The notes under the pieces: generated by a model
The model's database searches: none
Seen by the model: the letters and a program-made list of their open reading frames with translations, nothing else
Told to the model about the DNA's origin: nothing
Program-made: the position numbers and the translations under genes
Shown: piece by piece, positions 49,843-53,812 of the stretch
How positions within the stretch are numbered: the first letter of the stretch is position 1
How the letters are laid out: the number at the start of each line of letters is the position of its first letter
Assembly (NCBI RefSeq): GCF_004117055.1
Contig: NZ_CP026363.1
Span: 1,403,001-1,467,000, forward strand
DNA length: 64,000 nucleotides
Source: Brevibacillus agri
Lineage (GTDB): Bacteria > Bacillota > Bacilli > Brevibacillales > Brevibacillaceae
Direction: 5' to 3'

Positions 49843-49885
49843 CGAAGCCCTCCTTCAGAATTCTAGTCTGGAGAGGGCTTCCCTT
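49843..49885. terminator. Second hairpin downstream of the suf operon
   Basis: GAAGCCCTCC and TTCAG pair with CTGGAG and AGGGCTTC, a long nearly perfect stem. A moderate T tract (CCCTTGTTT) follows on the plus strand. It sits just past the stop of the minus-strand AbrB-like gene. Confidence 0.65.
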
Positions 49886-49910
49886 GTTTATTCTGATTCA
49901 TGTTGCTTCA

Positions 49911-50081
49911 CTAGCACAGGAATACACATGCCAGTTCATACTTCTTCAATATGTTACATTCATCAACAACGTAAATCTCCAATGGATCTTTGAGGATAAT
50001 ATCAAAAATGGCTCGTAGCTCCTTTGGAAGCACAATGCGTCCAAACTCATCGACTTTTCTAACAACCCCGGTTGCATTCAT
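49911..50081 (-). CDS. AbrB-family DNA-binding protein (56 aa)
   Basis: ATG at 50081, TAG at 49911-49913. The product begins MNATGVVRKVDEFGRIVLP and goes on KELRAIFDIILKDPLEIYVVDE, the SpoVT/AbrB swapped-hairpin domain with the classic GRIVLPKELR core. It continues CNILKKYELAC, also family-typical. It is complete but shorter than AbrB/Abh (about 90), lacking the C-terminal multimerisation region. No strong SD is seen. It is a likely transition-state-type regulator, possibly of the adjacent AT-rich island. Confidence 0.8.
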   Translation of the reverse strand: MNATGVVRKVDEFGRIVLPKELRAIFDIILKDPLEIYVVDECNILKKYELACVFLC

Positions 50082-50194
50082 CGTTTATTACTCGAAACTG
50101 AATAAAAATTGAGCAAAAAAGTGGAAATAAATCTAAAATTACGCTAAATTTTAAAAAGGGGTATATGGGTAATATTGTAAAATTAGGGTGATGG
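50082..50194. other. AT-rich intergenic region upstream of the AbrB-like gene
   Basis: Strongly AT-rich, with several TATA-like stretches, which mark the beginning of the low-GC island. No gene or defined motif seen. Confidence 0.35.
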
Positions 50195-50395
50195 TTAATT
50201 TTTTGAGAGATAATTGAAAAGCCAAAAAAAGAAGATTATTGATGTTGGAAATACAATGATAAAAATTATTAGTGTCTCTTTTGGATTCTTAATCGAATCA
50301 CGAATAAAATTAGAGAAACCAAGTGTAAAGAAAAACGTGATATTTTCAAAAGCTTTGTCTGCAAGGCTTTTGTTTTGATCATCATTGTTTTTCAA
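50195..50395 (-). CDS. Small membrane protein (66 aa), unknown
   Basis: TTG 50395 has AGAGG seven bases before it; the GTG at 50404 is too close to that SD. The product is a charged N-terminus (KNNDDQNKSLADKAFENI), then an aromatic hydrophobic segment (about 22-33), and a strong TM helix at about 44-62 (ETLIIFIIVFPTSIIFFFWLF). It is divergent from the secreted protein at 50474, 78 bases apart. No family recognised. The position would suit an immunity or partner protein, but this is inference. Confidence 0.55.
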   Translation of the reverse strand: MKNNDDQNKSLADKAFENITFFFTLGFSNFIRDSIKNPKETLIIFIIVFPTSIIFFFWLFNYLSKN

Positions 50396-50473
50396 AGTAA
50401 ACACCTCTTTTGGGTTTATTACACAATATTACCATTTATTTCACTGTTAATAAATAGTAAAGGGTCATGAATA

Positions 50474-51529
50474 ATGAAGAAAATTACAAGCACACTGTTA
50501 GCTTTATCGGTTGTAGGAATGTCTATATTTTCGAATTTTGCTGTAGTACCTACAACTTTCGCGAAAAGTAGCAAGGCTTATGAAAAAATTCCTCAGCCTA
50601 AATTTGATTCTTATAAGATTGAGTTAAATGATGGATATAAAATTGTTTCCGAAAGTGTTGAAATAAACAAAAATGATGATTTCATCGAGACATCAGTTTA
50701 TTCAAGAGAGGATTTTTTTGATAATGACGGTAAATATCAAAATACTGTCCTTGAGATTTCTTCTTTCCACAATGATTTCGAGACTGGAGAGGCAAAGAAT
50801 AAATTCCTAACTAAAACGGTTCATGATGAAAAAGGAAGAAAGACGTTGTCAAGTAAAAAAACTGTCTCTTTTGAGATTACTGATTTTGAAGCAGAGATTG
50901 AAAGTTATTTTGAAGATGAAGAGGGGGCATTTGATAAAATCGAGGGGTATACTCTAGAAGACGTTAAAGAAGAGAAGGAAACAATAAATAAAGAAATTGA
51001 AAAGAATAATAATTCCATTGGTTTAAAGGCTGTTTTAGCCAGAGGAGCTTTTGACAATTATTACAACCATGATAATAAATCGGGAGACTTTGAAATTCAG
51101 GCTTTGAGTGCCTCAGCACATGAATATATTAGGATTACAGGTAATGAAGATGATGGGGATAACTCTGACTCTTTGTCGAATTTCAAGAGCTATATAAAAG
51201 CTTATGAAGATGCAGTTATTACAAAAATGGATCGAGAAGAGTTTAGAGATGAGGTAAATGCTTGGGCTAGCGGTATTTCTTCCTTCCTTACTATTGGCCA
51301 ATACGGAGGAGAATATTTAAAAGGACCAGCGGGATGGGTTAAAGGAGTTAAGTACCTTGGAAAAGCGTTCATGGTTGCTAAGTTAGCCCTTTGGACAACA
51401 CAAGCCTATGCTTCAGGGGCGGTCTTGGGTTACTCAAATATTGCAGCAGAAAATCTAGATAACGCTAGAAAAGAATTGAATTACAAAAACTGGACGAATG
51501 TAAGAATGAAGATTGTTAGCGGATACTAA
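50474..51529 (+). CDS. Secreted protein of unknown function (351 aa), candidate bacteriocin-like
   Basis: A signal peptide (MKKITSTLLALSVVGMSIF, cleavage near residue 30, TFA-KS). The middle, about 35-210, is acidic, Lys/Glu-rich and probably helical. The C-terminal part, about 250-351, has a hydrophobic Gly/Ala-rich stretch (FLTIGQYGGEYLKGPAGW, then LGKAFMVAKLALWTTQAYASG) that could insert into membranes. AAAGGG precedes ATG. Base composition is far more AT-rich than its neighbours, a sign of transfer. The overall plan, a long secreted precursor with a hydrophobic C-terminal peptide, recalls large bacteriocins such as geobacillin 26. I cannot verify homology. A strong terminator follows. Confidence 0.7.
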   Translation: MKKITSTLLALSVVGMSIFSNFAVVPTTFAKSSKAYEKIPQPKFDSYKIELNDGYKIVSESVEINKNDDFIETSVYSREDFFDNDGKYQNTVLEISSFHNDFETGEAKNKFLTKTVHDEKGRKTLSSKKTVSFEITDFEAEIESYFEDEEGAFDKIEGYTLEDVKEEKETINKEIEKNNNSIGLKAVLARGAFDNYYNHDNKSGDFEIQALSASAHEYIRITGNEDDGDNSDSLSNFKSYIKAYEDAVITKMDREEFRDEVNAWASGISSFLTIGQYGGEYLKGPAGWVKGVKYLGKAFMVAKLALWTTQAYASGAVLGYSNIAAENLDNARKELNYKNWTNVRMKIVSGY

Positions 51530-51599
51530 GAGTGTGGAGGGTATTTATTAGACTCTCAAATTATTACTCATGCGAGTTTAAGACAATGTAGGCGTAGCT

Positions 51600-51640
51600 T
51601 CCCTCCCTAATCTAATCGATGTAGGGAGGGGTGTTTTTAT
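51600..51640 (+). terminator. Terminator of the secreted-protein gene
   Basis: CCCTCCCT pairs with AGGGAGGG around a 14-base loop, then GTGTTTTTAT. The insertion sequence begins directly after it. Confidence 0.85.
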
Positions 51641-51641
51641 T

Positions 51642-53120
51642 TGAGCCTTTTGCAGATTTCTGAGCCCTTTCGTATCAAGCACTTGAAAAGCATAAAAAAG
51701 GACTTCACCCCAAGAAGGAGAAGTTTTCAAGCAACCACACACGAAAACTTTTCGAGGAAGGTGAAGTCACTTGTATATTCTCCAGCCATCACTTTTTTCC
51801 TTTGAGGAACTGCAAAAACTTGAATCGAAAGAACGTCTGCCCTTATTTTTTTCGGTTCTGGACTTACGCCCGTACGCCAAAGAATTGAGAAGCATTACGC
51901 CCCAAGGGGCAACGGGACACAGCCGCGAAGCGATTTTACGGTCTTTGTTGGCGGCTCCTTTCGAAGGAATTTCGCAATTTACTGCTCTTCATCTGAGACT
52001 CACAAGTGATTTACGCTTTCGTTACCAGTGTGGGTTTCCCATTGATCGACCCGTTCCATCCATTGCAACGTTTAGTCGCGTATTTGCTCAAATTGTCCAG
52101 AAAAGCGTTGCCGAGAAGCTGTTTTACGACCTCGTCATGCAATGCCGTGAAGAGGGAATCATTACAGGAACGACCATTGCCATCGACAGCACGGCGATTG
52201 ATGCGTATGAAAAAAAGCAACCGAAATCTCGCTGCCAAGGAACAGGAAACGCCACCTGGGGAGCCAAGTTCGACTCCTTTGGCAATAAAATCACGTGGTT
52301 CGGTTACAAAATTCATCTGGCAGTAGACGCGGACAGCGAATTGCCTGTTGCTTTAGAAGTCACTCCTGCTCACGTCAACGATGGAGACATGGCTCCTCCT
52401 CTCCTGGCACAAGTGAACAACCAAGCCAAGGAAGTGTGTAAGAATTACGTGATGGATGGTGGATACGATCATCTCAAGAACTACGAAATCGCTCATCAAT
52501 ACAAGGCACAGGCTATCATTCCTCTAAACCTCCGAAACGAGAAAGAGCCACCTGCTGGTTATACGTCAAACGGAACGCCTCGATGCAGCATGGGATTTGA
52601 AATGGTGTACGCAGGTGCTGACGGAACCCATCTCAAATTTCGTTGCCCGCATGTGATGGGAAAAGTAGAGTGCCCACACGGCTCAGCTTGGTGCTCTTCC
52701 TCCAACTACGGAATGGTCGTAAAAGTGAACGTCCACGATGATCTCCGCAGATTTTCTTTGCCACATCGGGACACAAAGAATTGGAAGAAGATGTATCACA
52801 AACGGACGAGTGTAGAGCGATGCAATGCCCGTTTAAAGGAAAACCTGACAGCGAATGATCTACATGTCGGTGGCATTCAAAAAGTGAAAACGTATGTGTA
52901 TTTGAATGCTATCGTATTATTGGTGTCTGCTCTGGCAGGAAAGAAAGCCAAGCCATCCAAAAAAACGGCCTAAGCACTCTTTTGAAAAAAGCAGCATCGC
53001 AAAATTCTGTCCGAATGCCCATCTTGCTTTTAGGCTTTACCTTATAAAAGTGGCATTTCCCACTTTACGTACCATTAAACTTCATTTTTTAAACGAAAAC
53101 CTAATTTTGCAAAAGGCTCA
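51642..53120 (+). mobile_element. Insertion sequence, 1.48 kb, DDE transposase
   Basis: The ends are perfect 13-bp inverted repeats, TGAGCCTTTTGCA at 51642-51654 and its complement at 53108-53120. They enclose one transposase gene. TTAT lies at 51637-51640, one base outside the left end, and directly after the right end, a possible 4-bp target duplication. Nothing looks degenerate, so it may be mobile. Confidence 0.85.
51771..52973 (+). CDS. Transposase of the insertion sequence (400 aa)
   Basis: An N-terminal DNA-binding region of the DUF772 type (LRPYAKELRSITPQGATGHSREAILRSLLAAPFEGISQFTALHLRLTSDLRFRYQCGF), then a DDE catalytic core: D in AIDSTAIDAYEKK, D in VMDGGYDHLKNY, and E in HKRTSVERCNARLKE. 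A Cys-bearing insert (FRCPHVMGKVECPHGSAWC) lies between. It resembles IS5/IS1182-type elements; the exact family is not settled. The start is as given (MYILQPSLFSFEELQ, GTG-TTG-type start region after GGAAGGTGAAG). Complete. Confidence 0.88.
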   Translation: MYILQPSLFSFEELQKLESKERLPLFFSVLDLRPYAKELRSITPQGATGHSREAILRSLLAAPFEGISQFTALHLRLTSDLRFRYQCGFPIDRPVPSIATFSRVFAQIVQKSVAEKLFYDLVMQCREEGIITGTTIAIDSTAIDAYEKKQPKSRCQGTGNATWGAKFDSFGNKITWFGYKIHLAVDADSELPVALEVTPAHVNDGDMAPPLLAQVNNQAKEVCKNYVMDGGYDHLKNYEIAHQYKAQAIIPLNLRNEKEPPAGYTSNGTPRCSMGFEMVYAGADGTHLKFRCPHVMGKVECPHGSAWCSSSNYGMVVKVNVHDDLRRFSLPHRDTKNWKKMYHKRTSVERCNARLKENLTANDLHVGGIQKVKTYVYLNAIVLLVSALAGKKAKPSKKTA

Positions 53121-53162: not shown

Positions 53163-53236
53163 TGAAATCGCAAATATTAGTTATATTATAGTGTAACTGG
53201 AAAAACAGGTTAGGAAAACTAAAGGAAGTGACAAGC

Positions 53237-53812
53237 TTGGACGCAAAGAACGCGCATTACTGGATCACTGTGATATTCGCGGGGCTGGTATTTTTGTTAG
53301 TGCTCAACTACATCCCCGCCCAAGACACTGTACAAGAACAAATCTTTGCAGAGAGAGGATATAAGATTGTAAGCCAATCAGAAAGCATCGCTACTGAGTT
53401 TATTTTCGACCCAACATGGGTTCCCCAAGCAGGAGAAAGCAAAACTATTGACTTCATTTTTTACGATGCTAACAATACTCAAATCTATGTTAGCGAGGTC
53501 AAAAATAATGGACAAATGACATATGTAAATTTGAAATTCAGCTCGAATTACAATAAAGAGGGAGGGAAGTTTGTCACTTCTACTGTGATTCACAAAGACA
53601 ACGGCCAATTGAATTATTCGGGTGTTCTAATCAAGCCGCGCTTTTATGATGTGCAAAACAACGAAGAACTTGCCATGGAGTATAGCACTGGGATAGGGCC
53701 AGATGACTTGATAACGCTAGGTTTTGGGAAAAAGGAAATGGAACAATTTAGCGGGAAGAAAATAGCTGTAAAACTAAGTAATTTAAACTTGGTTCAATAT
53801 CGAAAAATATAG
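53237..53812 (+). CDS. Membrane-anchored hypothetical protein (about 191 aa)
   Basis: TTG 53237 follows AAAGGAAG at suitable spacing; the in-frame GTG at 53228 abuts the SD. One N-terminal TM helix (WITVIFAGLVFLLVLNYI, about 9-26) anchors an exported domain of beta-rich look (YVSEVKNNGQMTYVNLKFSS). It contains GYKIVSQS, close to GYKIVSES of the secreted protein at 50474. AT-rich. No family recognised. Confidence 0.6.
   Translation: MDAKNAHYWITVIFAGLVFLLVLNYIPAQDTVQEQIFAERGYKIVSQSESIATEFIFDPTWVPQAGESKTIDFIFYDANNTQIYVSEVKNNGQMTYVNLKFSSNYNKEGGKFVTSTVIHKDNGQLNYSGVLIKPRFYDVQNNEELAMEYSTGIGPDDLITLGFGKKEMEQFSGKKIAVKLSNLNLVQYRKI

What the first reader, a model, noticed from the sequence alone, without database searches (positions are those of the whole stretch)
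50195..51529. Divergent pair: secreted protein with a hydrophobic C-terminus plus a small membrane protein in an AT-rich island
The 351-aa product has a signal peptide, an acidic middle and a C-terminal Gly/Ala-rich hydrophobic segment. It is divergent from a 66-aa single-TM protein and is far more AT-rich than the surrounding chromosome. Secreted effector plus small membrane protein is the shape of a bacteriocin with immunity. Large bacteriocins such as geobacillin 26 have a comparable plan, but I cannot show homology.
Basis: partly seen in the sequence, partly recalled or inferred. Interest (0 to 1): 0.65.

Follow-up and report, generated by a model that had tools for sequence, protein, structure and literature searches.

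The report
Probable bacteriocin gene with immunity partner
A Brevibacillus-type bacterium carries a small mobile gene pair that very probably makes a secreted protein that kills related bacteria, plus a small membrane protein that protects the maker; the protein belongs to an undescribed family distantly related to the antibacterial protein geobacillin 26.

Summary
Window 50474-51529 (+) encodes a 351-aa secreted protein, and 50195-50395 (-) encodes a 66-aa membrane protein. They lie divergently in the most AT-rich stretch of the window (34% GC against 54%). The 351-aa protein matches nothing in Pfam, NCBIfam, PHROGs, PADLOC or the PDB, but genome searches find an undescribed family in several families of Bacilli.

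Evidence for toxin plus immunity:
(i) the genes sit in one cassette whose divergence differs from its flanks and which lies elsewhere in one sister species;
(ii) every intact homologue has a 66-99 aa membrane-protein gene within 140 bp, of several sequence types and in all orientations;
(iii) a near relative keeps the small gene intact while its toxin gene is a short remnant, an orphan-immunity pattern;
(iv) profile comparison links the family to the geobacillin 26 family (90-96% probability; shuffled controls at most 1.6%), whose genes, alicyclobacillin 24 included, usually have a similar small neighbour.

It fails the NCBIfam geobacillin-26 membership model, so I call it a new sister family of Sec-secreted class III bacteriocins. 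Killing and immunity are inferred, not shown.

The parts
50102..51642 (.). AT-rich mobile cassette (approximate limits)
   Evidence: 94.8% identical in G002 while the sufB-side flank is 82.6%; 85% identical in G001 (49844-51644) at a place without sufB within 16 kb; 33.7% GC
50195..50395 (-). small membrane protein, 66 aa, TTG start, candidate immunity protein
   Evidence: RBS AAAGAGGTG, one TM segment, conserved in G001, G002 and as an orphan in G013
50396..50473 (.). 78-nt divergent promoter region between the two genes
   Evidence: sequence; a promoter-like site for the small gene at 50450-50423 (-), only 9 of 12 matches, not above chance in number
50474..51529 (+). 351-aa secreted protein, candidate class III bacteriocin
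   Evidence: ORF, RBS AAAGGG, conserved family
50474..50563 (+). signal peptide, residues 1-30 (by inspection)
   Evidence: basic start, hydrophobic core, TFA at the likely cleavage site
50609..50824 (+). N-terminal beta-strand domain, residues 46-117, shared with stand-alone lipoproteins
   Evidence: profile hits to about 155-165 aa lipoproteins at E down to about 1e-26; predicted strands (low confidence)
50825..51043 (+). variable acidic linker, residues 118-190
   Evidence: poorly conserved and of varying length in alignment A4
51044..51526 (+). C-terminal candidate killing domain, residues 191-351: GAFDNYYN, NAxSLxxFKxYI, GPAGW and the C-terminal VSGY
   Evidence: most conserved part of the family; matches the geobacillin 26 profile around the SxNAxxLxxF motif
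51236..51484 (+). predicted two-helix hydrophobic region, residues 255-337, with the GPAGW turn at 284-288 (51323-51337)
   Evidence: AlphaFold helices, low pLDDT; alignment
51601..51640 (+). probable intrinsic terminator of the toxin gene
   Evidence: CCCTCCCTA/TAGGGAGGG inverted repeat followed by T-run; near the right end of the cassette in all three species

Best explanation
The pair is a bacteriocin-immunity cassette. The 351-aa protein is exported by Sec and loses its signal peptide. It consists of an N-terminal beta-rich domain, an acidic linker and a C-terminal domain that ends in a helical hairpin with an invariant G-x-x-GW turn (GPAGW here). As in geobacillin 26 and alicyclobacillin 24, the C-terminal part probably inserts into or perturbs the membrane of closely related Gram-positive cells. 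The divergently transcribed 66-aa single-TM protein stays in the producer's membrane and blocks that action. Shown here: the genes, their conservation, the family, its distant link to geobacillin 26, the constant small-membrane partner, transfer of the cassette, and survival of the small gene after loss of the toxin gene. Inferred: secretion, killing, membrane target and immunity.
For: Profile-profile match to the geobacillin-26 family, probability 90.4% local and 95.7% global, against at most 1.6% in 60 column-permuted controls and at most 8.5% in 40 unrelated window proteins. The match lies at the same point of both families, the SxNAxxLxxFxxxI motif just before the C-terminal helices. Predicted order of elements is the same in both: signal peptide, beta-meander, second beta set, two long C-terminal helices (low confidence). 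22 of 24 genes of the two families have a 40-100 aa TM ORF within 150 bp, against 6 of 32 control genes with AT-rich flanks (p = 7e-8, not corrected for relatedness). All 12 intact loci of the new family have one, of several sequence types and in divergent, convergent and co-directional order. In G013, at the same sufB-side site, the small gene is intact (83% identical protein, dN < dS) but only about the first 25 codons of the toxin gene remain. The cassette is more similar between G000 and G002 than its flanks are, and less similar between G000 and G013 (85.5% against 95.6%). Distribution is patchy: 4 of 39 genomes of the order.
Against: No activity data. Direct HMM search of the protein against the geobacillin-26 model gives nothing. 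A single-sequence comparison with alicyclobacillin 24 also gives nothing; only profiles see the link. The C-terminus of this protein is less hydrophobic than in homologues. Structure models are weak (pLDDT 50 and 58). The small-ORF control is small and the families are phylogenetically related.
Confidence: 0.74

Rival explanations
1. The 351-aa protein is a secreted toxin or adhesin aimed at something other than bacterial competitors (for example a eukaryotic grazer or an insect), and the small protein helps its export.
For: The N-domain is shared with non-toxic-looking lipoproteins; no activity is known.
Against: The small gene survives alone in G013, which an export helper would not. Partner genes are of unrelated types, and the distant kinship is to bacteriocins.
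Confidence: 0.1
2. The small protein is the active agent (holin-like or type I toxin-like peptide) and the large secreted protein is a separate cell-envelope protein; they only travel together.
For: Small single-TM peptides can be toxic; the partners show no sequence likeness across some loci.
Against: Partners occur beside homologous large proteins in every intact locus and in geobacillin-26-family loci. The small gene is kept under apparent constraint without the large one.
Confidence: 0.08
3. The 351-aa protein is a house-keeping sporulation, coat or signalling protein acquired by transfer, with no antagonistic role.
For: Lipoproteins with the same N-domain are widespread in Paenibacillaceae and Bacillaceae-type genomes and have no known role.
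Against: Patchy distribution, a mobile cassette, remnants and frameshifted copies in several genomes, and the geobacillin-26 link.
Confidence: 0.08

Closest known systems
Geobacillin 26 / alicyclobacillin 24 (class III bacteriocins; NCBIfam NF035925 Geo26A_fam)
   Same: Sec-secreted protein, beta-rich N-terminal part, C-terminal hydrophobic helices, SxNxSxLxxFxxAV-like motif before them; adjacent small 1-2 TM gene, including an unannotated 2-TM ORF 64 bp after the alicyclobacillin 24 gene.
   Different: 351-411 aa against 238-245 aa; extra acidic linker; GxYDNYYN and GPAGW motifs and a C-terminal VSGY absent from the Geo26 alignment; no match to the NF035925 model; N-domain not detectably related to the Geo26 N-domain.
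Unnamed lipoproteins of about 155-165 aa in Paenibacillaceae and Bacillaceae-type genomes
   Same: Homologous N-terminal domain (E down to about 1e-26).
   Different: Lipobox instead of plain signal peptide; no C-terminal domain; not seen next to the toxin genes here.
Small membrane immunity proteins of bacteriocins (general kind)
   Same: Small, membrane-spanning, next to the toxin gene, sequence-diverse, kept alone after toxin loss.
   Different: No sequence match to any named immunity family.

Membership tests
Geobacillin-26 family (NCBIfam NF035925) | Score above the curated cut-off of 40 bits | tested here: not met
   No match at E up to 1 for the window protein or its homologues, while alicyclobacillin 24 scores 123.6 bits
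Geobacillin-26 family (NCBIfam NF035925) | Homology in the C-terminal domain | tested here: met
   hhalign 90.4% local, 95.7% global; C-domains alone 70%; controls at most 1.6%
Geobacillin-26 family (NCBIfam NF035925) | Sec signal peptide | tested here: met
   Read by eye from the sequence; no predictor was available
Geobacillin-26 family (NCBIfam NF035925) | C-terminal transmembrane helix | tested here: inconclusive
   Window protein KD19 maximum 0.97; homologues 1.42-2.05; helices predicted at low confidence
Class III bacteriocin | Heat-labile antibacterial protein of high mass | not testable with these tools
   Predicted mature mass 36.3 kDa fits; activity needs an assay
Bacteriocin immunity protein | Gene constantly beside the bacteriocin gene | tested here: met
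   All 12 intact loci of the family; 22 of 24 with the Geo26 family
Bacteriocin immunity protein | Can persist without the toxin gene | tested here: met
   G013 C47: intact small gene with a toxin remnant
Bacteriocin immunity protein | Protects a sensitive cell | not testable with these tools
   Needs expression in a sensitive strain

The most novel reading that the evidence does not exclude
Geobacillin-26-like proteins and this family form one large superfamily of Sec-secreted bacteriocins, each with an exchangeable small membrane immunity protein that has so far been overlooked. In this branch the toxin's N-terminal domain is shared with widespread lipoproteins that could act as receptors, decoys or orphan immunity factors against it.
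Probability: 0.2. Interest if true: 0.65.

Novelty: new variant of a known kind. Interest (0 to 1): 0.52.

Why it matters
Only two members of the geobacillin 26 class are named in the papers found, and the one I could read in full (alicyclobacillin 24) never mentions immunity. A sister family with several genomic examples, conserved motifs, and a natural toxin-loss/immunity-kept case gives a testable immunity gene for this class and new candidate antibacterials against spore-formers. It also raises a new question: why the N-domain is shared with common lipoproteins.

Tried and rejected
Pfam, NCBIfam, PHROGs, PADLOC and PDB searches: no match. Plasmid and phage collections by tblastn: no match; one viral-contig hit covers only the N-domain at E 4e-6 and was not pursued. 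Rfam: nothing in 49-55 kb. Structure models of both families came out at pLDDT 50 and 58, too weak for a fold search, so none was run. P0003 (53228-53812) shares GYKIVSxSxxI with the N-domain, but the profile score is only 7.3 bits: rejected as a homologue. The IS1182-like transposase downstream was considered as the cassette's carrier and rejected, because the matching stretch in G001 and G002 ends before it. L047 as a sequence bridge to the Geo26 family: single-sequence comparison gave nothing.

Full report
WHAT IS THERE. The window lies at 1403001-1467000 of a 5.37-Mb single-contig genome. Two of its closest relatives there are a 6.2-Mb genome (G001) and one deposited as Anoxybacillus sediminis NZ_CP064048 (G002); from general knowledge I take the genus to be Brevibacillus, which was not tested. 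The 351-aa ORF (50474-51529, +) and the 66-aa ORF (50195-50395, -) are divergent over 78 nt, each with a ribosome-binding site. The pair is 33.7% GC over 50190-51642 in a 53.9% window, and the lowest-GC windows of this size all overlap it. The protein has a signal peptide, a net charge of -15 over residues 32-185 and a Gly/Ala-rich C-terminus. Neither protein matches Pfam, NCBIfam, PHROGs or PADLOC, and the family profile finds no solved structure.

A MOBILE CASSETTE. G002 carries the pair at the same place after sufB. The cassette is 94.8% identical while the sufB-side flank is 82.6%, and G001 has it 85% identical at another place. In G013, whose flank is 95.6% identical to the window, the cassette part is only 85.5% identical. 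Cassette and flanks therefore have different histories, which indicates transfer or recombination of the unit. Between G000 or G002 and G001 the toxin shows dN/dS of 0.23-0.25 and the small gene 0.31-0.39; between G000 and G002 there are too few changes to judge.

THE FAMILY. Profile searches find full-length relatives (28-44% identical for the distant ones) in G013 (C87), Chengkuizengella marina, G308, G787, G878, G840, G662, G631 and G953, and damaged or partial copies in G381, G744, G541, G518, G436, G838 and G002. Invariant or nearly invariant motifs are GxYDNYY (GAFDNYYN here), Fx(x)Q, a NAxSLxxFKxYI stretch, GPxGW and a C-terminal G-aromatic end. Only some genomes carry it: 4 of 39 of the order.

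THE PARTNER. All 12 intact loci have a small membrane-protein gene of 66-99 aa at 33-138 bp. Order is divergent in the window, G001, G002, G308, G662, G631 and G953; co-directional in C. marina, G787, G878 and G840; convergent in G013 C87. They fall into several sequence types: the window type; the G308/G787/G878/G840 type; the G631/G953 type with a QPxTGAVGDG loop, to which G013 C87 and G662 are weakly similar; and C. marina. With the geobacillin-26 family, 22 of 24 genes have such a neighbour within 150 bp, against 6 of 32 control genes with AT-rich flanks and 12 of 152 of all control genes. The loci are related to one another, so the p-value of 7e-8 is indicative only. Decisive in kind is G013 C47: at the sufB site the small gene is intact (83% identical protein, dN below dS), and what follows is only about the first 25 codons of the toxin gene. 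A gene kept after loss of its toxin is what an immunity gene looks like.

LINK TO GEOBACILLIN 26. Alicyclobacillin 24, a proven homologue of geobacillin 26 with membrane-damaging activity on Alicyclobacillus (PMC13176240), was read from its plasmid and identified NCBIfam NF035925 as the family model. P0001 and relatives do not match that model. However, hhalign of the two family alignments gives 90.4% (local) and 95.7% (global), 70% for the C-domains alone, nothing for the N-domains, and at most 1.6% for 60 permuted controls. Adding L047 gives 92%. Unrelated window proteins stay at 8.5% or below. A 271-aa protein of G396 (L015) matches the new family's profile over its first 81 residues, signal peptide included (65%), and the Geo26 profile at its C-terminus (94%), as an intermediate would. 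Predicted element order is alike in both families, but both models are low in confidence.

THE N-DOMAIN. The same searches return many stand-alone lipoproteins of about 155-165 aa that align only to the N-terminal part. The N-domain is thus an independent module. Its role (pro-domain, receptor binding, or target of a lipoprotein decoy) is open.

MECHANISM AND VERDICT. Most likely the protein is exported by Sec and kills close relatives through its C-terminal helical domain at the membrane, while the small TM protein protects the producer (0.74). Secretion, killing and protection are inferred. It works like geobacillin 26 but is not a member by the family's own model, so it is best called a new sister family: a new variant of a known kind.

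Noticed in passing
L047:1249-2013 (G000:C1 near 1899007), same genome outside the window: A second candidate: a secreted protein of about 254 aa weakly matching the geobacillin-26 model (19.6 bits, cut-off 40), with a 69-aa 2-TM ORF 83 bp downstream.
   Followed up: partly
L024:1234-1422 (-), plasmid of Alicyclobacillus acidoterrestris DSM 3922: An ORF of about 50-60 aa with two TM segments, 64 bp after the alicyclobacillin 24 gene and absent from the PLSDB gene table, is a candidate immunity gene for that bacteriocin.
   Followed up: partly
L059, L061-L063, L066-L068, L078-L090 and others: A widespread, apparently unnamed lipoprotein family (HIEVFxIETxEENxEG...TGYKKVNAIT...IEDFYD) in Paenibacillaceae and Bacillaceae-type genomes is homologous to the toxin's N-domain.
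   Followed up: partly
window 49911-50081 (-): A 56-aa AbrB/SpoVT-type DNA-binding domain lies beside the cassette; its counterpart at the G001 locus reads in two frames. It may be a truncated regulator.
   Followed up: partly
window 51771-52973 (+): An IS1182/IS5-like transposase gene directly downstream, absent from the cassette in sister species.
   Followed up: partly
window 53228-53812 (+): A 194-aa protein with one N-terminal TM in a second AT-rich patch (39% GC), no family match; the best, but not significant, of the window proteins against the toxin profile (8.5%).
   Followed up: partly
L015:1501-3012 (G396): A 271-aa Geo26-like secreted protein followed by two near-identical tandem 4-TM proteins on the opposite strand, possibly duplicated immunity genes.
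   Followed up: no
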